Shown here in pieces: positions 1,163 through 61,917 of a stretch of 64,000 bases of DNA. Under the pieces are notes generated by a model that was not told the DNA's origin, ran no database searches, and saw only the letters and a program-made list of their open reading frames with translations. A program made the translations under genes and the position numbers. The first letter of the stretch is position 1. The number at the start of each line of letters is the position of its first letter. Source of the DNA: Bacteroidales bacterium (GTDB lineage Bacteria; Bacteroidota; Bacteroidia; Bacteroidales; UBA932); NCBI GenBank assembly GCA_017550655.1, contig JAFZOK010000039.1, forward strand, positions 44,186 through 108,185, in the 5' to 3' direction.

Positions 1163-2503
1163 ATGGGAAAGAAAAGAATCGTAATACTCGGAGGAGGAGA
1201 AAGCGGAGTGGGAAGCGCCGTCCTTGCAAAGGTCAAGGGCTTTGACGTGTTCCTCAGCGATGCCGGCACCATAAAGCCGCAGTACAAGGAGACACTCTCC
1301 AAATTCCAGATCGAATACGAAGAAGGAGGCCACACCGAGGAGAAAATCCTCTGTGCAGACGAGGTCATAAAAAGCCCGGGAATCCCTGAGGAGAACCCTA
1401 TGGTGCAGAGCATCAGGGAATACCGCATACCGGTAATCTCGGAGATAGAGTTTGCGGGAAGATATGACCGCGCAAAGAAAATCTGCATAACCGGAAGCAA
1501 CGGAAAGACCACCACCACATCCCTGATCTACTATATGCTCAAGAATGCGGGACTGAACGTGGGACTGGCCGGCAACATCGGCAAGAGCTACGCCTACCAG
1601 GTTGCAACCGAGAACTTCGACTATTACGTTATCGAGCTCAGCAGCTTCCAGCTGGACGGAATGTACGCCTTCAAGGCAGACATCGCCATCCTGACCAACA
1701 TCACTCCGGACCATCTGGACCGCTACCAGTTCAAGATGCAGAACTATGTGGATGCCAAGTTCCGCATCGTCCAGAACCTTACGGACAGGGAATGCTTCGT
1801 GTTCTGCGCAGACGACCCTATCACTGCCAAGGAACTGGACCGCATAGTGCTGACGGCAAAGAAACTTCCGTTCACCCAGAAAAAGAAAGTGGACCAGGGA
1901 GCCTTCATAGACGAAGACCGCCTGTTTGTGCGCTACGAGGACGACGAGTATTCGATGTACCTGAAGGAACTTGCCCTGCAGGGAAAGCACAATGTCTATA
2001 ACTCCATGGCGGCAGCCATTGCGGCAAAGGCCGTGAACATAGACAACAAGGTCATAAGGGAATCTCTGATGAACTTCCAGGGAGTAGAGCACAGGCTCGA
2101 GAAAGTGCTATCCATCAAGGGAGTGATGTACATCAACGACTCCAAGGCAACCAACGTGGACTCAGCCTGGTACGCCCTGGAAAGCATGACCACGCCGGTG
2201 GTATGGATAGCCGGCGGAAAGGACAAGGGCAACGACTACAGCCCGCTTTACAAGTTCGTGAAGGACAAGGTGAAAGTGCTCATCTGCATGGGACTCCACA
2301 ACGAGAAACTGCACGAGTGCTTCGGAGACAAGGTGGAAAAGATCATCGATGTGACCAGCGCAAAAGACGCGGTACAGGCAGCTTACGAGAACGCCGTTCC
2401 CGGCGACACCGTGCTCCTGAGCCCGTGCTGCGCCAGCTTCGACCTTTTCAAGAGCTATGAAGATCGCGGAGAACAATTCAAGAAAGCAGTAAGGGAATTG
2501 TAA
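1163..2503 (+). CDS. murD: UDP-N-acetylmuramoylalanine-D-glutamate ligase (MurD)
   Basis: This cytoplasmic Mur ligase adds D-glutamate to UDP-MurNAc-L-Ala using ATP. The 446-residue length is normal. An N-terminal Rossmann-like glycine stretch (GGGESGVGS, about residues 10-18) binds the UDP moiety, and the ATP loop GSNGKTTT lies at residues 111-118. The central domain carries the usual LTNITPDHLDRY motif, and the C-terminal part ends with the SPCCASFD motif. The ATG lies 6 bases after the mraY stop. Its TAA stop shares one base with the ftsW ATG (TAATG), which implies translational coupling within the dcw operon. Confidence 0.97.
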   Translation: MGKKRIVILGGGESGVGSAVLAKVKGFDVFLSDAGTIKPQYKETLSKFQIEYEEGGHTEEKILCADEVIKSPGIPEENPMVQSIREYRIPVISEIEFAGRYDRAKKICITGSNGKTTTTSLIYYMLKNAGLNVGLAGNIGKSYAYQVATENFDYYVIELSSFQLDGMYAFKADIAILTNITPDHLDRYQFKMQNYVDAKFRIVQNLTDRECFVFCADDPITAKELDRIVLTAKKLPFTQKKKVDQGAFIDEDRLFVRYEDDEYSMYLKELALQGKHNVYNSMAAAIAAKAVNIDNKVIRESLMNFQGVEHRLEKVLSIKGVMYINDSKATNVDSAWYALESMTTPVVWIAGGKDKGNDYSPLYKFVKDKVKVLICMGLHNEKLHECFGDKVEKIIDVTSAKDAVQAAYENAVPGDTVLLSPCCASFDLFKSYEDRGEQFKKAVREL

Positions 2504-3915
2504 TGGCAGACAAAGAGAAGGACATAAGGGAAAGCGAGAATCAGACCCCGCAGGAAGAGGTAATGAGCCGTCTCCACGGAGACAAGGTTATATGGGCCAT
2601 TTTCTTCCTCCTGAGCCTGATTTCCATCGCCCTCATATATTCGGCCAGCAGCAGCCTGGCGTATATGAAGGGCAGCACCAATTTTGCCATCCTTATGAAA
2701 CAGATAAGGTTTGTGGTGCTTGGTGTTGCGGCCCTGTTCATCTGCTACAAGGTTCCTCCAAAATGGTACAGGGCAATGTCCATGCTCACCCTGCTTCTGG
2801 CCATAGTCCTTCTTGTACTGACCCTTGCCATCGGTGTCAAGACCAACGACGCCCAGAGATGGCTCTCCATCGGAGGACTGCAGTTCCAGCCTACGGAGTT
2901 CGCCAAGATAGCCATAGTGCTGTATCTTGCAAGGGCTCTGGAGATTATGAAGATAGACACCTACAAGAGCTTCCTGCTGAAGATTATCGCCCCTATCGGA
3001 GTGTGCATCGTGCTGGTGCTTGTGGGAAGCGTATCGGCGGCGCTGTATCTTGCACTGATCTGCTTCATAGTACTGTTCATAGCCGGCATCAAGCCGTCCT
3101 ATCTGCTGAAGACCATAGGGCTTGGAGCCGCAGCCGTGGTATTGCTGATTGTGGTCCATCTGGCAAGCAAGCCTTTCACATCGGAGCACAGGGGAGTGTT
3201 CCCGAGAATGGACACCGCGATAGAAAGGTTCAACCGCTTCTTCAGCAGCAGCGAGGACATAGACGTGTCCACCCTGGACAAGAGGGAGCAGCAGAGGCTC
3301 GCGGACGAGACCCTTCAGGCGGATATGGCCCAGATTGCCGTGAAGGAAGGAGGACTTCTGGGCAAGGGTCCCGGAAAGAGTACTCAGCGATATGTGCTGC
3401 CTCACCCTTACTCGGACTACATTTACTCTATCATTCTGGAGGAATACGGACTGTGGGGAGGAATCCTGGTAATGATGCTCTACGTATGGTTCTTCTACCG
3501 CTGCGTGCTGATTGTCAGGGGATGCCGCACGGTATTCTCCGCCGTTACGGCCGGAGGGCTTGGAGCGGTGATACTTGTGCAGGCGATGCTCCACATCCTG
3601 GTGAACGTGGGCATATTCCCTGTAACCGGTCACACACTGCCGCTGATAAGCCTAGGAGGAACATCCTTCATCATCATAAGCTGCGCCTTCGGAATCATCC
3701 TTTCCATCTCCAGGACCAAGGAAGACGCCGAGGCTCTGATCCAGGAAAGGGAAAGGGAGGAGAAAGAGCAGAAACGCCTTGAGCGTGAGCGCAAGAAAGA
3801 AGAAGAGCGCCGTGCCGCCCAGGCCGAGCAGCTCAAGCAGGACGCCATGACTCAGGAAGAAAGAGACGAGTATCTCAAACAAAGATATGCAGACCAGTTA
3901 GGTCCAGACGAATAA
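2503..3915 (+). CDS. ftsW: SEDS-family lipid II polymerase FtsW
   Basis: FtsW is the division-specific SEDS glycosyltransferase that polymerises lipid II with its partner class B PBP (FtsI, not in this window). The 470 residues contain a run of hydrophobic helices, the conserved PTEFAK segment near residue 130 and the late VTGHTLPLIS/GGTS motif. Position in the dcw cluster between murD and murG supports FtsW rather than RodA. The last 60-65 residues form a highly charged, probably coiled-coil cytoplasmic tail rich in Glu, Arg and Lys, longer than in model FtsW proteins. What the tail binds is not known. The start overlaps the murD stop by one base. Confidence 0.95.
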   Translation: MADKEKDIRESENQTPQEEVMSRLHGDKVIWAIFFLLSLISIALIYSASSSLAYMKGSTNFAILMKQIRFVVLGVAALFICYKVPPKWYRAMSMLTLLLAIVLLVLTLAIGVKTNDAQRWLSIGGLQFQPTEFAKIAIVLYLARALEIMKIDTYKSFLLKIIAPIGVCIVLVLVGSVSAALYLALICFIVLFIAGIKPSYLLKTIGLGAAAVVLLIVVHLASKPFTSEHRGVFPRMDTAIERFNRFFSSSEDIDVSTLDKREQQRLADETLQADMAQIAVKEGGLLGKGPGKSTQRYVLPHPYSDYIYSIILEEYGLWGGILVMMLYVWFFYRCVLIVRGCRTVFSAVTAGGLGAVILVQAMLHILVNVGIFPVTGHTLPLISLGGTSFIIISCAFGIILSISRTKEDAEALIQEREREEKEQKRLERERKKEEERRAAQAEQLKQDAMTQEERDEYLKQRYADQLGPDE

Positions 3916-3925
3916 AACGATTGTT

Positions 3926-6442
3926 ATGGATAAGTTAAAGGTTATCGTAAGCGGCGGAGGAACAGGCGGGCATATATTCCCGGCCATCTCTATAGCAAAC
4001 GCCATCCGGCAGCAGGTTCCGGATGCTGACATCCTCTTTGTAGGAGCCAGCGGCAGAATGGAAATGGAAAAGGTTCCGGCCGCAGGCTACCCTATCAAGG
4101 GAATCCCCGCAAGAGGACTCCACAGGCCGCTCTACTCCCTGTCCAACATAGGCGTAGCCAGAGACTACCTCAAATGCCGCCGCCTGGCAAAGAAAATCGT
4201 GAAGGAATTCAAGCCGGACTTCGTGGTTGGAGTCGGCGGATATGCCTCCGCAGCAGTGGTTAGCGCTGCCGCAGCCCTGAAGGTTCCGGTACTTTTGCAG
4301 GAGCAGAACTCCTTTGCCGGAATCGTAAACCGCAAGAACGCCTCCAAGGCAGCCAAGATATGCGTAGCGTACGACAATATGGAACGCTTCTTCCCTAAGG
4401 ACAGGATCCTTCTAACAGGAAACCCTATCCGCAAGGAGATTGTCCGCTGCACCCCTGAGATGAAGGAGGAGGGTATCCGCTTCTACAACCTTGATCCTGA
4501 GAAGAAAACCGTATTCGTTGTAGGAGGAAGCCTGGGATGCCGTACCCTGAACAACTGTATGAAAAAAGCTATACTGGAAAACCGCATAAAGGGATTCCAG
4601 GTTATCTGGCAGTGTGGCAAGGTCTACAAGAAGGAGATAGACGAGTTTTTGAAATCTACCCCTCATGAGTGTGTCTGTTGTACTGATTTCATTAGCAGGA
4701 TGGACCTTGCCTACGCCGCTGCCGACATCGTGGTCAGCCGTGCCGGAGCCGGAACGATATCCGAACTCTGCGTAGCGGGCAAATGCACCGTGTTCGTGCC
4801 GAGCCCTAACGTTGCGGAAGACCATCAGACACACAACGCCATGTCTTTGGTAAACAAGGACGCCGCAATGATAGTAAAGGACGCCGAGGCGGAGAGCAAG
4901 CTGATGGACACGATAGACGCCTTGATCGCCGATGAGGAAAAGAGGCGCAATCTGGAGAAGAACATCCTTCTGCTTGCAAAGCCGAATGCCGGAAAGGAGA
5001 TTGCTGACGAGTGCCTGAAACTCTGCAAGGGCAAAAACTTCACATCTTCCGAGCCAAAGAACGTTTACTTCATTGGAATCGGCGGAATCGGAATGAGCGC
5101 CCTGGCAAGATATTACAAGAGCCGCGGCTGCAACGTGAGCGGATATGACCGCACCCCTAGCCCGCTGACCAAGGCTCTGGAGGGCGAAGGCATCGCCGTC
5201 CATTACGAGGACAATCCTTCCCTGATTCCTCAGGACAAGGAGAACACCCTGGTAATCTACACGCCTGCGATACCTGCGGACATGCAGGAGCTCGTGACCG
5301 TCAATGCCAAGGGCTACAAGGTAATAAAGAGGAGCAGGGCTCTCGGCCACATCGCAGAGGGAAAAACCTGCCTTGCAATTAGCGGCAGCCACGGCAAGAC
5401 CACAACCAGCACACTGCTGGCCCACATCTTCCAGGACAGCGGCAAGGGATGCAACGCCTTCCTCGGCGGAATATCCCGCAACTATGGCAGCAACCTGCTG
5501 CTGGCAAAGAACAACACGGTTGTGGCGGAGGCGGACGAGTTCGACCGCTCCTTCCACCAGCTGTTCCCTCACATTGCGGTTGTAACAGCCACGGATCCGG
5601 ACCATCTGGACATTTACGGAACTGTGGAGAATATGAGAGAGGCCTACGCCAAGTTTGCCTCCCAGGTGGATGCGGACGGATACCTGATTGTAAAGCAGGG
5701 AGCCAAACTTGACACCTCAAACGTGAAGGCCAAGATCTACACCTACGCGTTCAAGGCTCCGGAAGGAAAGGCTCCGGATTTCTACGCTTCTGACATTGAG
5801 CCTATTAAGCAGGACGGCAAGGAGACCGGAATGTTCCGCTTCACGCTCAACTGCCCTGCTGAAATCGGCAACGTGGAAGGCTGCACCGTTGGCGTTCCGG
5901 GATGGGTGAACATAGAGAATGCGGTTGCCGCATCATCAGTCGCGCTGCTTGCCGGAATAGACAAGGAGAGCCTCAGGAAAGCCCTCGCATCCTTCCGCGG
6001 AGTCCAGAGAAGGATGGATATCCACGTAAACACTCCAAAGGTGGTGTACATAGATGACTACGCCCATCATCCTCAGGAGATTGCAACCACCATCAGCTCC
6101 CTCAGGGAAGCCTTCCCTACCAGGAAGCTGACCGCCGTCTTCCAGCCTCACCTCTACACAAGGACAAGAGATCTGGCAGACGGATTCGCAGAGGCCCTCA
6201 ACACTGCGGACAGTGTCATACTGCTGGACATCTACCCGGCAAGGGAACTCCCGATTGAAGGAGTTACCTCCGAGCTGATTTTCAACAAGATGAGCCTCAG
6301 CGACAAGATACTTATCACCAAGGAGGAACTCCTTGACACAGTAAAACAGAGACTTGAAGAAGGAAAGATAGACCTTCTGGTGACCTTCGGAGCCGGCAAC
6401 ATAGACCGCTTCGTGGAGCCGCTGGAAAAAATGCTGAAATGA
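3926..6442 (+). CDS. murG-murC: MurG-MurC fusion: lipid II synthase joined to UDP-MurNAc-L-alanine ligase
   Basis: One uninterrupted 838-residue frame encodes two consecutive cell-wall enzymes. Residues 1 to about 368 are MurG, which adds GlcNAc to lipid I: the glycine loop GGGTGGH (10-16), QEQNSFAG, and the donor-site motif RAGAGTISEL. Residues from about 377 on are MurC, which adds L-alanine to UDP-MurNAc: GIGGIGMS near 384, the ATP loop SGSHGKTTT (486-494) and DDYAHHP. Each half is close to the length of the free enzyme. The joining segment (about residues 366-378) has no stop and no ATG, GTG or TTG codon, so separate initiation of MurC looks unlikely. In most relatives the two genes are adjacent but separate. 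Its stop overlaps ftsQ (ATGA). Confidence 0.95.
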   Translation: MDKLKVIVSGGGTGGHIFPAISIANAIRQQVPDADILFVGASGRMEMEKVPAAGYPIKGIPARGLHRPLYSLSNIGVARDYLKCRRLAKKIVKEFKPDFVVGVGGYASAAVVSAAAALKVPVLLQEQNSFAGIVNRKNASKAAKICVAYDNMERFFPKDRILLTGNPIRKEIVRCTPEMKEEGIRFYNLDPEKKTVFVVGGSLGCRTLNNCMKKAILENRIKGFQVIWQCGKVYKKEIDEFLKSTPHECVCCTDFISRMDLAYAAADIVVSRAGAGTISELCVAGKCTVFVPSPNVAEDHQTHNAMSLVNKDAAMIVKDAEAESKLMDTIDALIADEEKRRNLEKNILLLAKPNAGKEIADECLKLCKGKNFTSSEPKNVYFIGIGGIGMSALARYYKSRGCNVSGYDRTPSPLTKALEGEGIAVHYEDNPSLIPQDKENTLVIYTPAIPADMQELVTVNAKGYKVIKRSRALGHIAEGKTCLAISGSHGKTTTSTLLAHIFQDSGKGCNAFLGGISRNYGSNLLLAKNNTVVAEADEFDRSFHQLFPHIAVVTATDPDHLDIYGTVENMREAYAKFASQVDADGYLIVKQGAKLDTSNVKAKIYTYAFKAPEGKAPDFYASDIEPIKQDGKETGMFRFTLNCPAEIGNVEGCTVGVPGWVNIENAVAASSVALLAGIDKESLRKALASFRGVQRRMDIHVNTPKVVYIDDYAHHPQEIATTISSLREAFPTRKLTAVFQPHLYTRTRDLADGFAEALNTADSVILLDIYPARELPIEGVTSELIFNKMSLSDKILITKEELLDTVKQRLEEGKIDLLVTFGAGNIDRFVEPLEKMLK

Positions 6443-7236
6443 AACCTGTCTGGAGAAACATATTGGCCGGATTGCTGTATGCCGCGCTGACCGTGGCGGC
6501 GGGAGCCTATTTCTGGGCAGCCCGCGGCCTGAGGGAAAGCGGCAGGAAGGACGAAGTTGTAAAGAGCGTGAAGGTTACGCTTCTGGACAGCTCACTGAAC
6601 AAGTTTGTCACCAAGCAGGAGATTGTGGATATCATCAACCGCTTCAGCGGCAACGTGATAGGCAGAAGGATAGACAGCATCCGCCTGGGCCAGATAGAGG
6701 AACTCCTCAACCACCGCAGCGTGGTAAAGGAAACCGAGGCCTTCGTAACCCGTGACGGTGTGATGAGCATAGAAATCCGCCAGAGGAAACCGGTCATAAG
6801 AATCCAGACGGAGGAGGGAGGATTCTATATGGACGAGACGGCATTTGTCTTCCCGCTCATAGACAACTACTCCTCATACGTTCCGGTGGTAACCGGCAAG
6901 GTTCCGCTGGACGTGCTAATGGACGAGCATCCTCAGAGCAAGGACACTACATCCTGGCTCGGAAAGATTCTCAACCTTGGACTGTACCTGGAGAAACATC
7001 CTTTCTGGAACGCCCAGATAGAGGAGATTTTCTTCAACGACGAGGGAGACGTGGAACTGATTGCCAGGGCCGGAAACCAGAAGATCATCTTCGGAGACCT
7101 GGACAACATCGCTGAGAAATTCGACAAGCTCCACTCTTTCTACAGCTACATTATCCCGAAGGCAGGATGGGACAAATATTCCTGCGTGAACCTTAAATAC
7201 CGCGGACAGATAGTCTGCACCAAAGCAAAGAAATAA
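6439..7236 (+). CDS. ftsQ: Cell division protein FtsQ
   Basis: FtsQ is a bitopic membrane protein that links early and late divisome proteins. The 265-residue product has a short cytoplasmic N-terminus, one hydrophobic helix at about residues 6-26, and a POTRA-like region (about 40-115) with the pattern VTKQEIVDII. This is followed by the FtsQ beta domain with DETAFVFPL. The sequence is divergent, as is usual for Bacteroidetes FtsQ, so position between murC and ftsA is a large part of the evidence. The start overlaps the murC stop by four bases (ATGA). Confidence 0.9.
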   Translation: MKPVWRNILAGLLYAALTVAAGAYFWAARGLRESGRKDEVVKSVKVTLLDSSLNKFVTKQEIVDIINRFSGNVIGRRIDSIRLGQIEELLNHRSVVKETEAFVTRDGVMSIEIRQRKPVIRIQTEEGGFYMDETAFVFPLIDNYSSYVPVVTGKVPLDVLMDEHPQSKDTTSWLGKILNLGLYLEKHPFWNAQIEEIFFNDEGDVELIARAGNQKIIFGDLDNIAEKFDKLHSFYSYIIPKAGWDKYSCVNLKYRGQIVCTKAKK

Positions 7237-8672: not shown

Positions 8673-9998
8673 ATGGAACTGATAGACGACAGCATTAACG
8701 ATTATCCTATAGACTTCAACGAGTCTAACAACATCATCAAGGTCATAGGAGTAGGAGGCGGCGGATGCAACGTAGTCCAGGAAATCTACAAGCAGGGCAT
8801 CAGCAATGTGGACCTGATGATATGCAACACGGACAAGCAGTCTCTGGACAACAACCGCGTGGACGAGAAGATTGTGCTCGGACCTAAAACAGCCCGTTCC
8901 CTGGGTGCCGGATGCGACCCCAAGAAAGGAAGGGAAGCGGCTCTGCAAAGCAAGGATGAAATCACCAAGGCAATACCGGACAGAATCGAGATGGTCTTTG
9001 TAACCGCCTGCCTTGGAGGAGGTACCGGAACCGGTGCCGCCCCTGTCATCGCTGAGATTGCCAAAAACAAGGGCAAGCTTGTGGTGGGAGTGGTAACCAT
9101 TCCGTTCAGAGATGAGGGAAAGGCCTTCATGACACGTGCAATGGATGGTCTGAGAGACCTCCGCCAGTATGTGGACAGCCTTCTGATCATAGATAACCAG
9201 AAGATTTACGAGTCCTTCGGAGACCAGAATATGATGGAAGCCTTCAAGAGGCCGAATGAAGTGCTGGTAACCGCCGTAAAGAGCATCTCGGAAATCATCA
9301 CCAAGGACGGAGAGATAAACGTCGATATGAACGACGTGAGGATGGTGGTGGAAAACAGCGGAATGACCACTATGGGCATCGGCGAGGCGGAAGGAGAAGG
9401 CAAGGCCCAGCAGGCTGTGGAGAAAGCGTTCGAGTCCCCTCTTCTGAACGACTGCGACCTGAAGACTTCTTCCGGACTGCTCATCAATATCGAATGCTCC
9501 GGAGAGAACTTCACTATGGCAGAGTTCAAGCAGGCCCTGGAAGCCGTCAAGAGCTTCACCGGCCAGCCTCTCAAATACAAGCGCGGACTCGTTTATGATC
9601 CTAACCTCGGCAACAAGGTAAGGGTAACGGTGGTTGCCACCGGATTCGACGTCCTCAACCTTCCGGACGTGGACGGACGCAACATCGTTATCCCGGGACG
9701 GGCCGGAGAAACCTCATACCGCCCGGACCCTATCCGTCCAAAGAACCAGGACGAGGCCAAAATGCCTCCTGTTCTGGAATTCGGCCCTACAAAGAGGGTT
9801 GCCGGCACCAAGCCTGTCCTTGTAACTGACGACGACAACGAGATCATCCAGCTGGAAAGCGTCCCTGCCTACGAGCGCAAGAACCGCAAGAACAGCCCCG
9901 GCATCACCACCAACAACATAACGCTCTCCGTTACAGAAATCGGAGACAAGCCATCACTTACCACAAACAACAGATACCTGCACCAGACTCAGGACTAA
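8673..9998 (+). CDS. ftsZ: Cell division protein FtsZ
   Basis: FtsZ is the tubulin-like GTPase that forms the Z ring. The 441-residue protein carries the tubulin signature GGGTGTGAAPV (starting at residue 115), an N-terminal VIGVGGGGCN nucleotide loop, the T7 loop NVDMNDV, and a variable linker. The C-terminal peptide NNRYLHQTQD resembles the NNxFLH peptide I associate with Bacteroidetes FtsZ and probably binds FtsA. It lies 18 bases after ftsA. The gltX start follows 16 bases later without a visible terminator, so read-through is likely. Confidence 0.97.
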   Translation: MELIDDSINDYPIDFNESNNIIKVIGVGGGGCNVVQEIYKQGISNVDLMICNTDKQSLDNNRVDEKIVLGPKTARSLGAGCDPKKGREAALQSKDEITKAIPDRIEMVFVTACLGGGTGTGAAPVIAEIAKNKGKLVVGVVTIPFRDEGKAFMTRAMDGLRDLRQYVDSLLIIDNQKIYESFGDQNMMEAFKRPNEVLVTAVKSISEIITKDGEINVDMNDVRMVVENSGMTTMGIGEAEGEGKAQQAVEKAFESPLLNDCDLKTSSGLLINIECSGENFTMAEFKQALEAVKSFTGQPLKYKRGLVYDPNLGNKVRVTVVATGFDVLNLPDVDGRNIVIPGRAGETSYRPDPIRPKNQDEAKMPPVLEFGPTKRVAGTKPVLVTDDDNEIIQLESVPAYERKNRKNSPGITTNNITLSVTEIGDKPSLTTNNRYLHQTQD

Positions 9999-13202: not shown

Positions 13203-14039
13203 ATGCCAAAACGCATTGCAGCGGCCGTTTTTGCCCTTATCCTCACACTCGCGGGTTGTTCTCCCAAGATTACTACAAAAGCCCGGCAAATCGCTGAGGC
13301 AAACACTACACGCTATGTTCCCGCAGCAGACATCAACAATTTCAAGTACGACACAATCCCCCAGTGGCTGATTCCACTGGATTCTCTTTATATAGCAGAC
13401 AGTCTCCCTGATTCGGCAATCTTGCTTCCGCCTCCGCCACCGTCAGACACCACAAATACCGAATTCAAAGAAGATCTTGCCCAGTGGGAATGGGGTAAAA
13501 GCATTCGTCCCACAGAAAGAGGCCGCCAGGCCAGCCAGGAATCCCTTTTCGGCATAGTGAGAATGTGTACCATATACTCGGAAGTCTTCGGATTCGTCAT
13601 CCATCCGGAAACAACCCCCGCCATTTACCGCTTTATGCTCTATGCCGGAGAAACAGGATATGCCGCCACTGCAAACGCCAAGAAAAAGTACATGCGCCGC
13701 CGTCCGTTTGACCTTATGGGAGAGGAAGTCTGGGGAGAGTTTGACTATGACGCTCTCCGCGAGGATGGCAGCTACCCTTCCGGCCACACGGCCCTCGGCC
13801 TGGCCACAGCGTTAGCTCTTGCGCAAGTGGCACCTGAGATTTCAGAAAAGATTCTTGAACGCGGTTACCAATACGGCGAAAGCCGGGTAATTGTTGGTGC
13901 CCACTGGCAAAGCGATGTAAACGCCGGCTACAAGGTTGCCCAGGCCGCCTTTAACGCAATGCAGAGCAGCCCCCGCTACCAGCAGCACCTTGCCGCCGCC
14001 CGCAAGGAATACCACCTCCTCAAACAACAGCAAAAATAA
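13203..14039 (+). CDS. PAP2 / class A acid phosphatase lipoprotein
   Basis: This is a predicted periplasmic phosphomonoesterase of the PAP2 superfamily. The 278-residue precursor starts with a lipoprotein signal (lipobox LAGC, Cys19). The three-part catalytic signature is complete: a KKKYMRRRP motif for the first block, PSGHT for the second, and SRVIVGAHWQSD for the third, which supplies the nucleophilic His and the Asp. The pattern matches bacterial class A nonspecific acid phosphatases more closely than lipid phosphatases with several membrane helices, since no further helices are visible. Substrate unknown. It follows the helical-tail protein gene by 18 bases. Confidence 0.88.
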   Translation: MPKRIAAAVFALILTLAGCSPKITTKARQIAEANTTRYVPAADINNFKYDTIPQWLIPLDSLYIADSLPDSAILLPPPPPSDTTNTEFKEDLAQWEWGKSIRPTERGRQASQESLFGIVRMCTIYSEVFGFVIHPETTPAIYRFMLYAGETGYAATANAKKKYMRRRPFDLMGEEVWGEFDYDALREDGSYPSGHTALGLATALALAQVAPEISEKILERGYQYGESRVIVGAHWQSDVNAGYKVAQAAFNAMQSSPRYQQHLAAARKEYHLLKQQQK

Positions 14040-15437: not shown

Positions 15438-15462
15438 AATACTTATACTCAGCGATAAAGAC

Positions 15463-25262: not shown

Positions 25263-25282
25263 CTGTTTCTCATCGCTGAGAA

Positions 25283-37765: not shown

Positions 37766-37788
37766 ACAATGAAATATTTGCAATAAAA

Positions 37789-37817
37789 ACGGCGGCAAGA
37801 TATGAATCTGCCGCCGT
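37789..37817 (-). terminator. Terminator after queA
   Basis: A 9-base-pair stem ACGGCGGCA/TGCCGCCGT (37789-37797 with 37809-37817) is followed on the minus strand by TTTTTATTG. It separates queA from the dprA operon. Confidence 0.8.
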
Positions 37818-53469: not shown

Positions 53470-54363
53470 TTAACCAGTTACAATCCAGTTGATATCCTTA
53501 CCTCTTCCCCAGTAGGACATCTGCCGCTTGGCGTAGTGGCGGGTGTTGGTCTTGATTTTTTCTATAGCCTCCGCGATGGAGATATTGCCGTCAAGATAAT
53601 CGAAAAGCTCCCTGTAGCCCACGGTTCTAAGAGGCGGTATGTGCAGTAAATCAGGGCAGAAGACATTGTCTTTGTAACGGAATCTGTCCAGGGACTTGAC
53701 CTCTTCCAGAAGGCCGTCCTCCATCATTTTGTCCACCCTGGTGTTTATGCGCTCATAGAGTTTATCCCGGTCCATCGTCAGACCAACTTTCTCGATTCTG
53801 AAAGGACGGGATTTGGAAGGCTCAGTCTTCCAGTCAGAGAACTTTCTGCCGGTCTGGAGGGTTACTTCCAGGGCACGGATAATACGCTGCGGGTTTGCAA
53901 TGTCAATTGTGTTGTAGGATTCAGGATCCAGCTGCTTAAGCTGATATCGCAGAGACTCTATACCCTCTTCCTTCATTTTGGCGTTCAGGGAATCGCGGAG
54001 CTCCATATCAGGCTCAGGAAAGGCATCCAGGCCGTTGCAGACGGCATCTATGTAAAGGCCGCTTCCTCCGCACATTATTAACCTGTCACGAGTCTTGAAA
54101 AGATCATTCAGAAGATTAAGGGCATCTATCTCGTACTGGCCTGCCGCATAATGCTCGGTGATGGATTTTGTCTGGATGAAATAATGCTTAACCTCAGCAA
54201 GCTGCTCTTTTAAAGGAACGGCCGTGCCGATGGTCATCTCCCTGAAAATCTGGCGGCTGTCGCAATTGATCACGGGAGAACCAATCTGTTTGGCAAGGTT
54301 GATTGCGTAAGCGGTCTTGCCAACAGCTGTAGGGCCAAGTATTATCGTAAGAACCTTTTCCAC
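53470..54363 (-). CDS. miaA: tRNA dimethylallyltransferase
   Basis: MiaA adds a dimethylallyl group to A37 of tRNAs. The 297-residue product has the P-loop GPTAVGKTAYA, NCDSRQIFREM, GGSGLYIDAV and KTNTRHYAKRQMSYW. The start codon is GTG (54363-54361), which shares one base with the upstream TAG stop (TAGTG). No better ATG gives the complete P-loop strand, so translational coupling decides the start. It converges on recQ. Confidence 0.93.
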   Translation of the reverse strand: MEKVLTIILGPTAVGKTAYAINLAKQIGSPVINCDSRQIFREMTIGTAVPLKEQLAEVKHYFIQTKSITEHYAAGQYEIDALNLLNDLFKTRDRLIMCGGSGLYIDAVCNGLDAFPEPDMELRDSLNAKMKEEGIESLRYQLKQLDPESYNTIDIANPQRIIRALEVTLQTGRKFSDWKTEPSKSRPFRIEKVGLTMDRDKLYERINTRVDKMMEDGLLEEVKSLDRFRYKDNVFCPDLLHIPPLRTVGYRELFDYLDGNISIAEAIEKIKTNTRHYAKRQMSYWGRGKDINWIVTG

Positions 54364-56162
54364 TACTTAAGCGGGGTAAACGGATAAACGACACTCACTA
54401 TGAAAATGTTTGCTGCCAGTATTATGATGTTCATGAAGAATCCAATCTTGAGGAAATCCGAGAACCTGTATCCTCCCGGGCCATAGACAAGCATATGTGT
54501 CGGAGAGCCGATAGGAGTTGCAAAACTGGAACTTACGCTAATCATCAGCGCTATCATGAACGGGAAAGGATCATATCCCAGCTTGACTGCAGCTGAATAC
54601 ATAATCGGGCAGAATATGGCACCGGCTGCGGTATTGCTGATGAATTCCGTTATGAAAGTGGCCACAAGGCAGATTGCAGTCATAACCAGAAGGGGACTGT
54701 TTCCGCAAACATTAAGGATTCCATAGGCCATCTTCTCCGCGATTCCTGTTTTCTGAAGCGCCAGGCCAAGCACCACAGAACCGGCAAACACCATAAGGAT
54801 ATCCCAGTTTATGGCTTTCATCGCCTGGTCCACGTTGCAGCAACGGAGGATAATCATAATAAAGGCCGCAATCACAGCGCAATTCATAAGGGACATCACA
54901 TTGGCGGCACTCAACGCAACCATCGCTATCATTATCAGAGAAGAAAGCAGCGTCCTTGTTCCGATATTGGCAACCTGTTCGGAATCAAAGAAATGAATCT
55001 GGCTGAAAATCCTGCTCCCTTCCGTTTTCATCTTAGGAGGGCATTCCAGAAGAAGAGTGTCTCCGGCCTGAAGCACAACCTCCCTCGGAGACTGGTTTAT
55101 CCTCTCCCCCTTTCTGGCCACTGCGACAAGGGTAACGTTGTTCTGACCTTCAAACCCGCTCTCAGATATCGTCTTGTTTATCAGGCTGCTGCCAAAAGTG
55201 ATGTAGGCAGTCTTGAGCTGGCGGTGCTTGACGGATTCTTTCGTGGAAAAAACATTATTCTCCGCGATTGCCAGGCCATGGCTTGCCTTAAGGTCCAGAA
55301 GCTCGTCAATCTGTCCGGAGAACACCAGACGGTCTCCTGCCATAATGGGATCTTCAGATGTCACCGGAGAAATGACGTCGCCGTCTGAACGTATGATTTC
55401 TATAAGGGATCCTCCCTTGACACTGTCCAGTCCAGCCTCGGAAACTCTCTTCCCGATGTATTTGCTGTCTTCCGGCACCTGGAATTCCACCGTGTATTCC
55501 GAAGCATCCTCAAAAGCGGCCTCCGGAGCCTTGCGGTCCGGAAGTAGTTTCCTAAGCGCAAGTACGGAAAGAACACCTACCACCAGGCAGAAAAGTCCAG
55601 GTATCGTGATAGACAAAATATTCATCGATATGCCCGTGTTGTCTTTATACAGGCCTGATATGATGAGGTTTGGCGGAGTTCCGATAAGGGTGCACACGCC
55701 TCCCATTCCGGAAGCGTAGCTCAGCGGTATCAAAAGCTTGGATGGAGAGATACCGAGTTTCTTGCTCCACATTTTCACGATACCCACAAACAAAGCCACC
55801 ACCGCAGTATTGCTAAGGAACGCGCTCAGTGCGGCAACCGGGAACATAAGCCTGGAGATGGCACCCGAATACCTTTTGGGCTGGCCCAGCAGATGCTTGG
55901 CTATCCAGTTCAGAACTCCCGTATGCATCAGGCCGGCAAGCACTATGAACAGGACTCCCACCACCACCGTGGAAGATGAACTGAATCCGCTGAAAGCTTC
56001 CTTCTCGTCCACCACCCCACTGACCAGCAGAATGCCTATGGCTGCCAGAAACACCACATCCGCCCTTAGCTTTGTGAAAATCAGCACGGAAAACATGGCA
56101 AGCACGGTAACAATCGTTATCCATGCGTAGAGGTTAAACCCCAAGAAAACTATAGTATCCAT
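54363..56162 (-). CDS. SLC13/DASS-family transporter with TrkA-C domains
   Basis: The 599-residue polytopic protein has two hydrophobic halves separated by about 200 soluble residues. The hydrophobic parts carry SNTAVVALFVGIV and FISNTAAGAIFCPIMYSAA, the two SNT motifs of DASS transporters. The soluble middle contains two TrkA-C (RCK_C) domains (YIGKRVSEAGLDSVKGGSLI and LINKTISESGFEGQ). Such proteins move dicarboxylates, sulfate or other anions with sodium; the substrate is unknown. Its stop overlaps the miaA GTG. Confidence 0.9.
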   Translation of the reverse strand: MDTIVFLGFNLYAWITIVTVLAMFSVLIFTKLRADVVFLAAIGILLVSGVVDEKEAFSGFSSSSTVVVGVLFIVLAGLMHTGVLNWIAKHLLGQPKRYSGAISRLMFPVAALSAFLSNTAVVALFVGIVKMWSKKLGISPSKLLIPLSYASGMGGVCTLIGTPPNLIISGLYKDNTGISMNILSITIPGLFCLVVGVLSVLALRKLLPDRKAPEAAFEDASEYTVEFQVPEDSKYIGKRVSEAGLDSVKGGSLIEIIRSDGDVISPVTSEDPIMAGDRLVFSGQIDELLDLKASHGLAIAENNVFSTKESVKHRQLKTAYITFGSSLINKTISESGFEGQNNVTLVAVARKGERINQSPREVVLQAGDTLLLECPPKMKTEGSRIFSQIHFFDSEQVANIGTRTLLSSLIMIAMVALSAANVMSLMNCAVIAAFIMIILRCCNVDQAMKAINWDILMVFAGSVVLGLALQKTGIAEKMAYGILNVCGNSPLLVMTAICLVATFITEFISNTAAGAIFCPIMYSAAVKLGYDPFPFMIALMISVSSSFATPIGSPTHMLVYGPGGYRFSDFLKIGFFMNIIILAANIFIVSVVYPFTPLK

Positions 56163-56171: not shown

Positions 56172-56657
56172 TTATTCGGAATCGCCCTCGTCGTCAAGTT
56201 CTTCATCCCCGATTTCATCGCCGAGCTCGGGAGTGAGATTGTCCAAAGTGTCGAACTTGCTGTCGAACTGGCCAGGAATCCTGCCCTTCTCCGCAACCAG
56301 CCTCGGATATGACACGTGAGGCAGGAATTCCACTTCAGAAATGAAGGTCAGCACCATGTACTTGTTCTTGGAAACATCGAACACGTAATGGAGAGTTGTG
56401 GCGCCTCCGGCAAGGGTCTTGGCAAGGCTCACACCGTCTATTGTTCCGCTGCCAAAGTCAAACAGGCCGTACATTGCCTTGAGCTTGCCAGCCCCGTCAT
56501 AGCCGCGGAAGACAATCATCTGGTCCGGAGCAAAATCCAGATCGTTGACAAGGAACTTGTTAAGCGCAAAGAGAGTCATATCGTCCTTGAGCTCATATTC
56601 CCTGAAAAACACCTTGTTGGAAGGGAAGGTGACCTTGTATCTGAGAATCGTAGGCAT
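56172..56657 (-). CDS. PRiA4 ORF3-like family protein
   Basis: The 161-residue acidic protein begins MPTILRYKVTFPSNKVFFRE and continues with a pattern resembling the plasmid pRiA4b ORF-3 family (TLFALNKFLVNDLDFAPDQM). The last 25 residues are almost entirely Asp/Glu/Gly. Database names such as IS1096 passenger TnpR for this family do not mean a mobile element here; no transposase or inverted repeats were found. The LuxC-like gene ends 12 bases upstream. Confidence 0.72.
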   Translation of the reverse strand: MPTILRYKVTFPSNKVFFREYELKDDMTLFALNKFLVNDLDFAPDQMIVFRGYDGAGKLKAMYGLFDFGSGTIDGVSLAKTLAGGATTLHYVFDVSKNKYMVLTFISEVEFLPHVSYPRLVAEKGRIPGQFDSKFDTLDNLTPELGDEIGDEELDDEGDSE

Positions 56658-56669: not shown

Positions 56670-57731
56670 TTATCCGTTGCTCTTGCGCAGAACCCCGCAA
56701 CCTTCCAGAATGGACCAAACGGTATTGACCCCGTCCATCCAGTCGTCTATAGCAGGAGACTGCGCCATACCAAAGTTAGTGAATTTTTTCTGTATAGAAT
56801 TGCGATTGCGGAAACAGAATTCATCCACTTCTGAAATATCCCTGTAGAAAGAGTATCTGACCACTCCCATTTGAGGAAACGGTTTTATGGACTCCTCCAG
56901 CAGGAAGAACCCGCCGTCCGCGCAACCCGGCTCACCGGAAAGAACAGCGACAGCCCTTTCTCTGATATATGAATTCATGTATGGCGTTATTTCTTCCAGA
57001 TATGGTTTCATACTCTGCGATGCCTTTATTATACGCCATATATCAAACCCTTCCGGAAGGAATAAAAACGAGATGCTCCGGCATCCGAGCCCGCAGTAAA
57101 GGAACATGTCCTCTGCCAGCTTTTCAAGATCGGAATCGCTCTCCCTGCCGCTCAACACCCCAAAGCTGAAACGGCTGCCCCTGGCCAGCATAGGCACCCC
57201 CGGAAACTCGTCTTTGAGCAGAGCCTTGTTCGAATCAGAGCCGCTGAACAGCAGAAAATCAAGCTTCCCTTCATATTCGCGGAGAAAAGATTTGTCTTCA
57301 AAGGATAATCCCGTTGCGGCAAGTGGAGAAATCTCACTCAGAAGCCCCGCTATGGCAGGTATCAGAATAGTGTCCTTGGAAGAAACCTTGATTCTGGCTC
57401 CGGCTCCAGTTGAAAGGACGCAGAGAAGATCGTGGAACCCCACTGCAGGAATATTGCCGGCCATAATGATTCCAACTCTTTTGCCTTCCATTTCCCTCCT
57501 TAGGGCGTTAATGTCATCCTCTGGGCCATCTGAATATGAAAGCAGGTTTTCCAAGGCTTCTTCTGTAAGATAATTCTCGGCGATAGCCTTGAGGGCACGC
57601 CTCTGCATAAAAGGCGTAAAGAGCGGATTGGCAGCGTATGCGGACTCTATGGACGATTCCATAAAAGAAATGTCCCCGAGCCTCTTGCCCAGTTCAGAAA
57701 AACACCGTATGAATTCGCTCCTGTTGAACAT
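56670..57731 (-). CDS. LuxC-like acyl-CoA/acyl-protein reductase
   Basis: The 353-residue product resembles LuxC-type acyl-CoA reductases: GIIMAGNIPAVGFHDLLCVL, FLLFSGSDSNKALL, and the active-site Cys region MFLYCGLGCRSISFLFLP. LuxC makes aldehydes from activated fatty acids. There are no luxA, luxB, luxD or luxE genes nearby, so the physiological aldehyde is unknown. The PRiA4-like gene follows at 12 bases. Confidence 0.82.
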   Translation of the reverse strand: MFNRSEFIRCFSELGKRLGDISFMESSIESAYAANPLFTPFMQRRALKAIAENYLTEEALENLLSYSDGPEDDINALRREMEGKRVGIIMAGNIPAVGFHDLLCVLSTGAGARIKVSSKDTILIPAIAGLLSEISPLAATGLSFEDKSFLREYEGKLDFLLFSGSDSNKALLKDEFPGVPMLARGSRFSFGVLSGRESDSDLEKLAEDMFLYCGLGCRSISFLFLPEGFDIWRIIKASQSMKPYLEEITPYMNSYIRERAVAVLSGEPGCADGGFFLLEESIKPFPQMGVVRYSFYRDISEVDEFCFRNRNSIQKKFTNFGMAQSPAIDDWMDGVNTVWSILEGCGVLRKSNG

Positions 57732-57778: not shown

Positions 57779-58402
57779 ATGGCCAAAGGAAAGACACAGC
57801 AGACAACACTTCCGGACAACTATCTTAGCATAGCGTCCCCTACCGAAGGTCTTTACAAAGACAACGGAAGCCGTTTTTTGTCTTTCGCCTACCCTTGCAA
57901 AGACGCGGAAAGCGCGGAGGAAATTGTCAAAGGCCTGCGCAAGGAATACTACGACGCCACCCATCACTGCTACGCCTACAGGATTGGCCTGAAGGGAGAC
58001 ATCTGGAGGGCAAACGACGACGGGGAGCCTTCCTCCACCGCCGGCAGGCCTATTCTGGGAGAAATCCTTTCCAGGAATCTCAGCGATATACTCGTTGTGG
58101 TCGTGCGCTACTTTGGAGGAATCAAACTCGGCGTGCCGGGCCTAATCCGGGCCTACAAGGCAGCAACATCGGAAGCTCTTGACAAGGCGGAAATAGTGAC
58201 AAGGACAGCCACATCGCCGATGAAAATTGTCTTCCCCTACCATCAGACAGACAAGGTCCTGAAGGAACTCAGGAAACGGAACATAGAGGAATCGGACAAG
58301 AAATTCGAGGAAGAATGCTCCGTTACCGCACACGTGCCGCTGAGCATGACTGAGACCCTGAAAGAGGTTCTCCTTAAAATGGATGGGGTGAAGATTCTGT
58401 AA
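57779..58402 (+). CDS. yigZ: YigZ/IMPACT-family protein
   Basis: The 207-residue product has the UPF0029/IMPACT signature: SFAYPCKDAESAEEIVKGL, HHCYAYRIG, NDDGEPSSTAGRPILGEI and DILVVVVRYFGGIKLGVPGL. A C-terminal region of about 70 residues corresponds to the DUF1949 ferredoxin-like domain. The family is linked to translation control in eukaryotes; the bacterial function is unclear. ATG 57779 is chosen over an in-frame TTG at 57740. Confidence 0.9.
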   Translation: MAKGKTQQTTLPDNYLSIASPTEGLYKDNGSRFLSFAYPCKDAESAEEIVKGLRKEYYDATHHCYAYRIGLKGDIWRANDDGEPSSTAGRPILGEILSRNLSDILVVVVRYFGGIKLGVPGLIRAYKAATSEALDKAEIVTRTATSPMKIVFPYHQTDKVLKELRKRNIEESDKKFEEECSVTAHVPLSMTETLKEVLLKMDGVKIL

Positions 58403-58481: not shown

Positions 58482-58511
58482 TAGGAAACATATTAACATT
58501 TAAAATCCATT

Positions 58512-59603: not shown

Positions 59604-59613
59604 ATCTTTTGAC

Positions 59614-60537: not shown

Positions 60538-60540
60538 GCT

Positions 60541-61791
60541 ATGGTAAAAGTTAAACCGTTTGCGGCAATACGTCCGCCAAAGGAAATCGTAAAGGAAGTG
60601 GCATCACGCCCTTACGACGTGCTCAACTCAAAGGAAGCCAAGGCTGAGGCCGGCGAGAAATCCCTACTCCACATCATTAAGCCGGAGATAGATTTCGACC
60701 CTATCGCAGACGAGCACGAGCAGAAGACCTACGACAAGGCTGTCGAGAATTTCAAGAAGTGGCAGGAGAAAGGCTGGCTGGTACAGGACAAGAAGGAGCA
60801 GTACTATGTTTACGCCCAGACAATGGACGGAAGAACCCAGTACGGCCTTGTAGTCTGCGCCAACACAGACGATTATATGAGCGGTGCCATCAAGAAGCAC
60901 GAGCTTACCCGCAAGGAGAAGGAAGACGACCGCATGATTCACGTAAGAATCCAGAACGCCAACATCGAGCCTGTATTCTTCGCCTATCCGGATAACGCAG
61001 AGATCAACGCCATTGTTGAGAATACTGTAAAGGAAAAGGATCCGGAGTACGACTTTGTGGCAGAGGACGGATTCGGCCACACAATGTGGATCATCGACGA
61101 TGATGCAACCATCGCCAGGATTACGGAGATCTTCTCCACAGTTCCAGCTTTCTATGTTGCTGACGGACACCACCGTACTGCAGCTGCCGGAAGAGTGGGC
61201 GCTGAGAAGAAATCCCAGAATCCTAACCACACAGGTAACGAGGAGTACAACTACTTCATGGCAGTGGTATTCCCTGAAAGCCAGCTCAAGATCATCGACT
61301 ACAACCGCGTTGTAAAGGATCTTAACGGGATGACTCAGGACGAGTTCATCGCAAAACTCGGCGATTTCTTCACCGTTGAAAAGAAGGGTGCTGAGATCTA
61401 CCGTCCGGCCGGACTGCACAACTTCTCGATGTACATAGGCGGAGAGTGGTACTCCCTTACCGCAAAGCCTGGAACATACGACGACAACGATCCTATCAAG
61501 GTTCTTGACGTTTCCGTGTTCTCGGACTTCATCGCAGACAAGCTTCTGGACATCAAAGACCTCCGCACTTCCAAGAGAATCGATTTCGTTGGAGGTATCA
61601 GGGGGCTGGGAGAGCTCAAGAAGAGAGTGGACAGCGGAGAGATGGCAGCTGCATTCGCCCTCTATCCTGTTTCCATGCGCCAGCTCATAACCATCGCCGA
61701 TACAGGCAACATCATGCCTCCAAAGACCACCTGGTTTGAGCCGAAGCTCCGCAGCGGAATCACCATTCACTCCCTTGCAGACTTCAAGTAG
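60541..61791 (+). CDS. DUF1015 family protein
   Basis: The 416-residue product begins VKVKPFAAIRPPKEIVKEVASRPYDVLN, a DUF1015 hallmark, and contains YVADGHHRTAAAGRVG. The function is unknown, but this gene commonly accompanies serC and serA in Bacteroidales, so a role linked to serine metabolism is plausible (inference). It follows serA after 3 bases. A bidirectional terminator follows at 61841-61878. Confidence 0.9.
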   Translation: MVKVKPFAAIRPPKEIVKEVASRPYDVLNSKEAKAEAGEKSLLHIIKPEIDFDPIADEHEQKTYDKAVENFKKWQEKGWLVQDKKEQYYVYAQTMDGRTQYGLVVCANTDDYMSGAIKKHELTRKEKEDDRMIHVRIQNANIEPVFFAYPDNAEINAIVENTVKEKDPEYDFVAEDGFGHTMWIIDDDATIARITEIFSTVPAFYVADGHHRTAAAGRVGAEKKSQNPNHTGNEEYNYFMAVVFPESQLKIIDYNRVVKDLNGMTQDEFIAKLGDFFTVEKKGAEIYRPAGLHNFSMYIGGEWYSLTAKPGTYDDNDPIKVLDVSVFSDFIADKLLDIKDLRTSKRIDFVGGIRGLGELKKRVDSGEMAAAFALYPVSMRQLITIADTGNIMPPKTTWFEPKLRSGITIHSLADFK

Positions 61792-61840
61792 AAGCCGCCG
61801 GGGCGATGGTGCCTTGTAAAATCCTGTCAACCAGGTACAT

Positions 61841-61878
61841 GTAAAATAACCCGTAGCGTAAACTACGGGTTATTTTAC
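61841..61878. terminator. Bidirectional terminator with a 16-base-pair perfect stem
   Basis: GTAAAATAACCCGTAG (61841-61856) pairs perfectly with 61863-61878 around a 6-base loop, with A/T tracts on both sides. It ends the serine operon (+) and the outer-membrane barrel gene (-). An ATCGCTGAG word (61881-61889) adjoins it on the right. Confidence 0.85.
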
Positions 61879-61917
61879 ATATCGCTGAGACTGAGCCGCT
61901 TGCAGAGGACCATCGCC

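What the first reader, a model, noticed from the sequence alone, without database searches (positions are those of the whole stretch)
1253..61889. Nine-base word ATCGCTGAG / CTCAGCGAT is strongly over-represented on both strands
By hand I found 18 exact copies, starting at 1253, 3383, 7108, 9048, 10157, 13290, 14071, 15448, 21873, 21892, 25272, 26754, 35958, 37508, 39505, 40236, 58079 and 61881. About 0.5 is expected for a random 9-mer at this base composition. The orientation is balanced (nine each way). Three copies are intergenic, which is dense for so little non-coding DNA, and two of them directly follow terminator hairpins (25235-25262 and 61841-61878). Two form an inverted pair 10 bases apart (21873 and 21892). 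In genes the word is read in different frames (Ile-Ala-Glu, Leu-Ser-Asp, Gln-Arg), so one codon preference does not explain it. The AT-rich island (15.46-18.4 kb) has none. DNA-uptake sequences behave this way (strand-symmetric, near terminators, absent from recent imports), and dprA is present; a recombination hotspot or nucleoid signal is another option.
Basis: partly seen in the sequence, partly recalled or inferred. Interest (0 to 1): 0.75.

Follow-up and report, generated by a model that had tools for sequence, protein, structure and literature searches.

The report
DNA uptake-like words in rumen bacteria
A rumen bacterium of the phylum Bacteroidota carries a short DNA word about once per thousand bases, and close relatives carry different versions of it, which looks like a self-recognition tag for taking up DNA of one's own kind, a trait so far well known from two families of another phylum; uptake itself was not tested.

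Summary
All 18 copies exist; the genome holds 407 ATCGCTGAG against 2 of the reversed word. The motif is wider: ATCGCNGAG (1,045 against 21), with an A-rich 3' flank and about one matrix site per kb. It is strand-balanced, in excess in all six reading frames (214 against 29 codon-shuffled), without replication polarity, and arises by substitution.

Eleven of 37 tested genomes of the genus carry it at high copy; 13 of 39 carry CTGTCGGGA instead; six carry an intermediate, CYATCGNGA; nine are unassigned. None has both main words at high copy. The forms share TCG(C)NGA plus an A tract.

Best explanation (inferred, 0.75): DNA-uptake sequences, with dialects, in a Bacteroidota genus with ComEC and DprA but no pilus ATPase above cut-off. 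All 11 genomes of the window's dialect, and four others, encode adjacent CarboxypepD_reg and DUF5689 proteins, resembling a gene pair essential for Riemerella transformation; none of 13 CTGTCGGGA genomes has the pair, so their reader is unknown, and phylogeny confounds the link. No uptake was tested. Nine searches of a partial library showed no established uptake word for Bacteroidota.

The parts
1253..1261 (-). ATCGCTGAG
2463..2471 (+). ATCGCGGAG
3383..3391 (-). ATCGCTGAG
5351..5359 (+). ATCGCAGAG
7108..7116 (+). ATCGCTGAG
9048..9056 (+). ATCGCTGAG
10156..10164 (-). ATCGCTGAG
11202..11210 (-). ATCGCGGAG
11448..11456 (+). ATCGCCGAG
13290..13298 (+). ATCGCTGAG
14071..14079 (-). ATCGCTGAG; intergenic by my gene caller, but inside a 158-aa ORF
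14154..14162 (+). ATCGCAGAG
15448..15456 (-). ATCGCTGAG, intergenic by my gene caller
21872..21880 (+). ATCGCTGAG, arm of an inverted pair that folds as a stem-loop
21891..21899 (-). ATCGCTGAG, other arm of the inverted pair
22181..22189 (+). ATCGCCGAG
22345..22353 (+). ATCGCAGAG
22729..22737 (+). ATCGCCGAG
24219..24227 (-). ATCGCAGAG
25272..25280 (+). ATCGCTGAG, intergenic, after a terminator hairpin
26754..26762 (+). ATCGCTGAG
26869..26877 (-). ATCGCAGAG
35958..35966 (-). ATCGCTGAG
37508..37516 (+). ATCGCTGAG, inside dprA
37911..37919 (+). ATCGCCGAG
39505..39513 (-). ATCGCTGAG
39586..39594 (-). ATCGCGGAG
40236..40244 (+). ATCGCTGAG
43543..43551 (-). ATCGCAGAG
44404..44412 (-). ATCGCGGAG
44794..44802 (-). 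ATCGCGGAG
47886..47894 (+). ATCGCCGAG
49208..49216 (-). ATCGCAGAG
53569..53577 (-). ATCGCGGAG
53946..53954 (+). ATCGCAGAG
53992..54000 (+). ATCGCGGAG
54735..54743 (-). ATCGCGGAG
55260..55268 (-). ATCGCGGAG
56217..56225 (+). ATCGCCGAG
57013..57021 (-). ATCGCAGAG
57576..57584 (-). ATCGCCGAG
58079..58087 (-). ATCGCTGAG
61357..61365 (-). ATCGCCGAG
61881..61889 (+). ATCGCTGAG, intergenic, after a terminator hairpin
63338..63346 (+). ATCGCGGAG
36662..37798 (-). dprA, DNA-processing protein A, a transformation gene inside the window (only 10 window proteins were scanned against Pfam)
   Evidence: PF02481 E 3.1e-68 and DprA_WH; TIGR00732 209.9 bits, cut-off 191.15

Best explanation
ATCGCNGAG with its 3' A tract is a self-recognition DNA-uptake sequence of the DUS/USS kind, here in the Bacteroidales. 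A surface protein binds the motif on free DNA and so favours import of DNA from kin. Imported DNA recombines, so alleles that carry the motif spread by uptake bias and the word builds up to about one per kb in both orientations and all frames. As the surface reader evolves, the genome's word follows, which gives dialects among species: ATCGCNGAG (group A), CTGTCGGGA (group B) and CYATCGNGA (intermediate). The proposed route in group A is a DUF5689 lipoprotein with an adjacent CarboxypepD_reg outer-membrane protein, then a helix-hairpin-helix protein, ComEC, DprA and RecA, without a type IV pilus. Shown here: the motif, its statistics, the dialects and the gene content. Inferred: that the motif acts in uptake, that the 980-aa protein is an outer-membrane barrel (from its make-up; no barrel family was matched), and which protein reads the motif.
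For: Genome-wide enrichment, in all frames against a codon null. Weight-matrix density 0.99 per kb in G000 and 0.89 in G034, each with about 14% expected false sites, near the 'one copy per kb' stated for USS and DUS (PMC1626085, passages). No strand polarity. Strong consensus: 254 perfect copies against a mean of 22.9 for the 24 single-mismatch forms (550 in all, summed). The 3' A-rich flank is seen in every frame/strand class and is strongest between genes (mean A 59% in G000, 63% in G034); Pasteurellaceae USS also have a 3' AT-rich flank. Dialects: ATCGCNGAG at 359 to 1,058 copies in 11 of 37 genus genomes; CTGTCGGGA at 75 to 717 in 13 of 39, and at control level in all 11 of group A (10 to 37 against 10 to 28); CYATCGNGA raised in six more. 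Sites are kept between A species above same-phase windows (26 of 40 against 12.1; 26 of 53 against 13.4). Where a site is not kept, 92 of 101 site-by-relative comparisons are gap-free. Machinery: ComEC in 38 of 39, DprA, a protein with at least two HHH matches. Adjacent CarboxypepD_reg and DUF5689 (~340 aa) genes in 15 of 39 genomes, namely 11 of 11 A, 0 of 13 B and four others; matches lie within 160 bases of each other in all 15. In Riemerella anatipestifer adjacent genes with these domains (RS04915/RS04920), an HHH protein, ComEC and DprA are among eight essential for transformation (PMC8459023, passages and Discussion read). R. columbina prefers its own DNA (PMC7965970, section 16 read).
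Against: No uptake, binding or transformation was tested; these are draft assemblies. The pair is absent from all 13 B genomes, among them G034 with the most CTGTCGGGA copies, so B needs another reader, not found: the best candidate, a remote homologue, is full-length in only 8 of 13. Three B genomes have DUF5689 in a 711-741 aa protein. The pair is also in four genomes outside group A (G018, G029, G061, G062), so it does not fix the dialect, and labels cluster on gene trees, so carriers are not independent. Homology of the 980-aa protein to RS04915 rests on one domain and gene order; no Riemerella sequence was compared, and the Riemerella authors found RS04915 homologues only in Flavobacteriaceae. 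The DUF5689 protein is below the cut-off of the one NCBIfam lipoprotein model it hits (65.9 of 475 bits). Nine genomes are unassigned, eight of them with ComEC. In 12 of 38 genomes the ComEC match contains a stop codon (not followed up). Five B genomes have a mild excess of ATCGCNGAG (G034 59/22, G010 50/17, G002 39/16, G021 30/9, G001 25/7). Site conservation with G003 is near expectation (10 of 45 against 7.7). Intergenic and inverted-pair excess is absent or mild. Even spacing holds in G034 at 2 kb (variance/mean 0.75) but not in G000 (1.03, rising to 1.78 at 20 kb).
Confidence: 0.75

Rival explanations
1. A Chi-like recombination signal read by a RecBCD/AddAB-type nuclease.
For: Similar density and a short asymmetric word; a recombination signal could be maintained in genes (inference).
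Against: Orientation is balanced over 400 kb of contig C15, where GC skew is mostly of one sign (100 against 109), and over 28 stretches of the single-contig genome G034 (95 against 80 on the G-rich strand), whereas Chi sites are strongly polar (recalled). The A tract and the change of word inside one genus are not expected.
Confidence: 0.08
2. Binding site of a chromosome-organising, repair or transcription protein spread over the chromosome.
For: Even spread round the G034 chromosome; conserved sites.
Against: Perfect copies dominate, whereas regulatory sites usually have a relaxed consensus (PMC1626085 passage); most sites lie in genes. Dialect change at hundreds of sites per genome would need turnover without a driving process.
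Confidence: 0.08
3. Recognition site of a DNA methyltransferase or modification system whose marking or repair bias enriches the word.
For: Asymmetric words with a free base are common methyltransferase targets (recalled).
Against: A 50-fold excess over the reversed word, the 3' A tract and words that exclude each other at high copy yet share a core are not known effects of methylation (recalled). No modification data were available.
Confidence: 0.05
4. A dispersed mobile or palindromic repeat.
For: High copy number.
Against: 92 of 101 unkept sites are gap-free in relatives; flanks beyond about 14 bases share nothing; sites lie in genes in all frames. By contrast the GCATCTGAAC word of G014 is of this kind: 28 of 29 intergenic, with inverted pairs at a fixed spacing.
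Confidence: 0.01
5. Codon or amino-acid usage artefact.
For: Ile-Ala-Glu is commoner in the A genomes sampled (55 to 81 per 100,000 residues in four) than in G034, G010 and G002 (39 to 43).
Against: 214 against 29 codon-shuffled, all six frames, and intergenic copies. The tripeptide excess may itself follow from the motif.
Confidence: 0.01

Closest known systems
Uptake signal sequences of Pasteurellaceae (AAGTGCGGT and ACAAGCGGT types; PMC1626085, abstract and passages seen)
   Same: 9-base core, about one per kb, no orientation bias, perfect copies outnumber mismatched ones, AT-rich 3' flank, two subclade versions, origin by substitution.
   Different: Different phylum and unrelated core; uptake not shown here; one A tract instead of two AT segments; no pilus-type ATPase above cut-off in the genus.
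DUS dialects of Neisseriaceae (PMC3630211, abstract and the section on dialects read)
   Same: Distinct words with a shared core among relatives; one Neisseria dialect (wadDUS) is another with one base inserted, as TCGCNGA relates to TCGNGA here.
   Different: Read by the pilin ComP (start of abstract of PMC3868556 seen in listing); no pilus machinery found here; neisserial DUS has no flanking motif.
Transformation system of Riemerella (PMC8459023 passages and Discussion; PMC7965970 section 16 and passages; PMC8383284 abstract)
   Same: Same phylum, no pilus homologues reported; adjacent DUF5689 and CarboxypepD_reg genes, HHH protein, ComEC, DprA; preference for own DNA in R. columbina; TonB mutants impaired.
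   Different: Its DUF5689 protein also has DUF5017 and its CarboxypepD_reg protein was reported from Flavobacteriaceae only; no uptake word was established, the k-mer table lists A/T-rich words. The window's genus is of another order (recalled) and untested.

Membership tests
DNA-uptake sequence (DUS/USS kind) | Short asymmetric word at about one copy per kb, far above expectation | tested here: met
   1,045 exact against 21 reversed; 461 matrix sites in 464 kb against 65 in a control
DNA-uptake sequence (DUS/USS kind) | No orientation bias | tested here: met
   505 and 540 by strand genome-wide
DNA-uptake sequence (DUS/USS kind) | Perfect copies far outnumber single-mismatch forms | tested here: met
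   254 against a mean of 22.9 over 24 forms
DNA-uptake sequence (DUS/USS kind) | Sites arise by point substitution, not insertion | tested here: met
   92 of 101 unkept sites gap-free
DNA-uptake sequence (DUS/USS kind) | Distinct dialects among relatives that follow phylogeny | tested here: met
   Dialects. Labels cluster on the ComEC tree (6 changes against 14.5 shuffled) and the Tex tree (7 against 15.2), though group A alone does not cluster better than chance on the latter (4 changes against 4.7; five A rows, one aberrant)
DNA-uptake sequence (DUS/USS kind) | Spacing more even than random | tested here: inconclusive
   variance/mean per 2 kb 0.75 in G034, 1.03 in G000; 1.09 and 1.78 per 20 kb
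DNA-uptake sequence (DUS/USS kind) | Close inverted pairs and excess between genes | tested here: inconclusive
   Pairs 9-40 bases apart: G034 14 inverted, 2 direct, 6.6 of each expected; G000 9 and 3, 7 of each expected. Intergenic excess in G034 (18 of 49 against 13%) and for the T form in G000 (25 of 101 against 14%), deficit in G010 (1 of 35) and G020 (2 of 76)
DNA-uptake sequence (DUS/USS kind) | Cells prefer to take up DNA that carries the word | not testable with these tools
   needs a cultured member
   PF00437 above cut-off in 0 of 39 genomes (31 have matches below it), 13 of 14 control genomes above it; pilins and secretins were not searched
Riemerella-type Bacteroidota transformation machinery | Adjacent CarboxypepD_reg outer-membrane protein and DUF5689 protein | tested here: inconclusive
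   Both domains, adjacent, in 15 of 39 genomes, 11 of 11 of dialect A; direct homology to the Riemerella proteins was not compared
Riemerella-type Bacteroidota transformation machinery | ComEC, DprA and multi-HHH protein | tested here: met
   ComEC 38 of 39; DprA in the window; two HHH matches in one 293-aa frame of G000
Riemerella-type Bacteroidota transformation machinery | ComF and DUF1343 protein | not tested
   not searched
Chi-type sites | Polarity with replication direction | tested here: not met

The most novel reading that the evidence does not exclude
A Bacteroidota genus has evolved, apart from Neisseriaceae and Pasteurellaceae, its own uptake-sequence language with at least three dialects. 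The words are read at the surface by an outer-membrane protein plus DUF5689 lipoprotein pair in one dialect and by another reader in the rest, without a type IV pilus, so that dialect splits act as mating barriers between sister species of one gut habitat.
Probability: 0.45. Interest if true: 0.92.

Novelty: new variant of a known kind. Interest (0 to 1): 0.85.

Why it matters
Uptake sequences are well known from two proteobacterial families that import DNA with type IV pili (recalled, and start of the abstract of PMC7811141). An unrelated case in the Bacteroidota, with dialects inside one genus of 39 sampled species, would show that the trait evolves repeatedly and with other machinery. It would give a sequence handle for finding the DNA receptor of pilus-less Bacteroidota, let gene flow between gut species be read from genomes, and could help laboratory genetics of gut Bacteroidales that are hard to transform.

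Tried and rejected
Strand bias seen in the place listing was an artefact of the listing cap; the sequence shows 100 against 109. A further dialect in G014 (GCATCTGAAC) was rejected: 28 of 29 copies are intergenic, with six inverted pairs at 24 bases. The G010 TonB-receptor-like homologue (L265:1865-4357) as general B reader was rejected: full-length in 8 of 13 B genomes, not in G034, G001, G002, G009 or G021. The site-poor stretch C15:126.8-143.3 kb was checked for mobile genes: of five proteins scanned there, one kinase, one esterase, three without family, so 'recent import' stays unproven. The ComEC tree (30 of 38 genomes, as cut by the tool) was poorly resolved. The Tex tree (30 rows, 5 of the 11 A genomes) has an aberrant G016 row and short G012, G025 and G036 rows. 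A PDB profile search of the DUF5689 protein gave only two short chance-like matches (E 0.87 and 0.93).
Full report
What was found. The window lies in a 2.26 Mb, 42-contig assembly, 88% complete, of a rumen Bacteroidales species: its FtsZ is 98% identical to a yak-rumen MAG record (RGIG10221) and 95% to RUG13464. The genus name was not determined. The 18 copies of ATCGCTGAG are confirmed; the genome has 407 against 2 of the reversed word. Single-base tests in the window showed that position 6 is free. ATCGCNGAG occurs 1,045 times against 21.

Shape of the motif. In 464 kb (400 kb of contig C15 plus the window) there are 254 sites, 122 and 132 by strand. Flanks add C at -1 (46%, G 6%) and an A-rich run at +10 to +13; nothing marked further out. 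A weight matrix finds 461 sites in 464 kb against 65 in a Markov control. The A tract is present in all six frame/strand classes and strongest between genes, so it looks like a DNA-level feature.

Not a coding artefact. Within-gene synonymous shuffling gives 29.2 (sd 5.2, maximum 40 of 20 shuffles) against 214 observed, and each frame/strand class is in excess. Genes were called by my own script, which is crude; intergenic shares depend on it. Those shares are uneven: 40 of 254 in G000 (background 14%), 25 of 101 for the T form, 18 of 49 for CTGTCGGGA in G034 (13%), but 2 of 76 in G020, 2 of 48 in G003, 5 of 50 in G026 and 1 of 35 in G010.

No polarity. Over 400 kb the motif is 100 plus and 109 minus although GC skew is mostly negative. 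In the single-contig relative G034, 28 stretches of 20 kb give 95 against 80 on the G-rich strand.

Dialects. One search counted ATCGCNGAG in 61 genomes, 37 of the genus and 24 from other families of the order. Eleven of the genus have 359 to 1,058 copies (G000, G003, G004, G013, G016, G020, G026, G027, G028, G031, G032; reversed control 11 to 36). The other 26 have 6 to 170, and the 24 outsiders 9 to 110 (a few with mild excess, such as G057 110/23 and G043 90/15). G061 and G062 were not counted for this word. Word counts in stretches of non-enriched relatives then brought out another word, CTGTCGGGA, in G034 (49 in 160 kb against 0.6 expected) and G010 (35 in 140 kb against 1.7). Over all 39 genus genomes CTGTCGGGA reaches 75 to 717 in 13 (G001, G002, G006, G007, G009, G010, G011, G015, G017, G021, G022, G024, G034) and stays at control level in the 11 dialect-A genomes. 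ATCGCNGAG in those 13 is 7 to 59, with mild excess in five. CYATCGNGA is raised in G012, G018, G023, G025, G029 and G061 (282 to 457 against 53 to 151), which I call intermediate; it is also raised in the B genomes G001, G010 and G034 and about two- to threefold in most A genomes. Five of the six intermediate genomes were counted for ATCGCNGAG and show 78 to 170 against 6 to 29. The cut-offs between groups are mine. Nine genomes are unassigned (G005, G008, G014, G019, G030, G033, G035, G036, G062); some have a weak excess of one word (G036 120/23 and G033 98/19 of ATCGCNGAG; G019 54/13 and G005 30/1 of CTGTCGGGA). Weight matrices show a shared plan: TCG-N-GA (B and intermediate) or TCGC-N-GA (A), followed by A-rich bases, clear in G034, G000 and the intermediates, weaker in G010.

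Trees. On a ComEC tree of 30 genomes the dialect labels need 6 changes against 14.5 when shuffled. On a Tex tree of 30 rows they need 7 against 15.2; all six intermediate genomes, four of the five A genomes present and G033 fall together (support 98/99), the fifth A row (G016) being aberrant.

Evolution of sites. Between A species, sites are kept above same-phase windows: 26 of 40 against 12.1 (G020), 26 of 53 against 13.4 (G026), 6 of 9 against 1.9 (L061), 5 of 9 against 1.8 (L062), 10 of 12 against 5.8 (L059), 8 of 10 against 3.7 (L060); with G003 hardly (10 of 45 against 7.7), with the B genome G034 0 of 14. L059 to L062 were not assigned a dialect by genome count. Of 101 site-by-relative comparisons where the word is not kept, 92 have no gap in the word. 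Low-GC 4-kb windows hold fewer sites, although G034 reaches 0.89 per kb at about 42% GC.

Machinery. ComEC (PF03772) matches in 38 of 39 genomes, 12 of them with a stop codon inside the match (not followed up); DprA is in the window; G000 has a 293-aa protein with two HHH matches. No genome of 39 has a PF00437 ATPase (type IV pilus or type II secretion) above cut-off. In Riemerella anatipestifer, also without pilus homologues, a transposon screen found eight genes essential for transformation: those for a DUF5689 protein, an adjacent CarboxypepD_reg protein placed in the outer membrane, an HHH protein, a DUF1343 protein, ComEC, DprA, ComF and RecA (PMC8459023; passages and Discussion read). 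In G000 a CarboxypepD_reg protein of 980 aa and a DUF5689 lipoprotein of 336 aa (lipobox read by eye) are neighbours behind an endonuclease/exonuclease/phosphatase-family gene (L262:170-5000). A DUF5689 protein of 338-360 aa is in all 11 A genomes and in G018, G029, G061 and G062 and in none of the 13 B genomes; three B genomes have a different 711-741 aa protein and three unassigned ones a 921-922 aa protein. The 980-aa protein has the same 15-genome distribution at E up to 1e-20 (split over two contigs in G031, only its end in G062) and lies next to the DUF5689 gene in all 15. A profile search found remote relatives in other genomes; one, 22% identical, is full-length in 8 of 13 B genomes and in G005 (partial), G014, G019, G030 and G062.

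Reading. Density, strong consensus, lack of polarity, 3' A tract, substitutional origin and clade-wise dialects match what is described for USS and DUS (PMC1626085 passages; PMC3630211 section on dialects). R. columbina prefers its own DNA, and its authors looked for an uptake word but list only A/T-rich words (PMC7965970 section 16). I therefore conclude, at 0.75, that these are uptake sequences of a pilus-less Bacteroidota system. The DUF5689 pair is the best reader candidate for dialect A; it is confounded with phylogeny and cannot serve dialect B.

Prior work. Nine literature searches in a library of open-licence papers showed no established uptake sequence for Bacteroidota; four spellings of the words gave no paper. 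Earlier work elsewhere is possible.

Noticed in passing
G014 stretches (L087, L162-L165): GCATCTGAAC occurs 29 times in 94 kb, 28 of them intergenic by my gene calls, with six inverted pairs at 24 bases: a dispersed intergenic repeat.
   Followed up: partly
dialect-A genomes G000, G003, G026: ATCGCGATA/TATCGCGAT is also over-represented (29 in 464 kb of G000 against 1.5 expected); it contains the intermediate word's TCGNGA and may be a relic or a second accepted form.
   Followed up: no
G000 contig C15 and window sample: TGCTAGGTCC occurs 12 times against 0.1 expected; perhaps a separate repeat.
   Followed up: no
L182:5534-7654 (G034): 706-aa protein with a sub-cut-off HHH match and, by eye, a signal peptide and a beta-barrel-like end; 29 of 39 genomes have an HHH match in a frame of 550-762 aa, not compared with each other.
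   Followed up: no
window 15463-17337: Schlafen group 3 helicase-domain protein (PF09848, E 2.8e-92) in the AT-rich island that holds no ATCGCNGAG.
   Followed up: partly
window 25283-26215: 310-aa ORF that reads as a lipoprotein-like protein with Glu/Cys/Lys-rich repeats.
   Followed up: no
G000 C15:126.8-143.3 kb (L045, L046): 16.5 kb with a single matrix site inside it, sparse genes, a protein kinase, an esterase and three proteins without Pfam family.
   Followed up: partly
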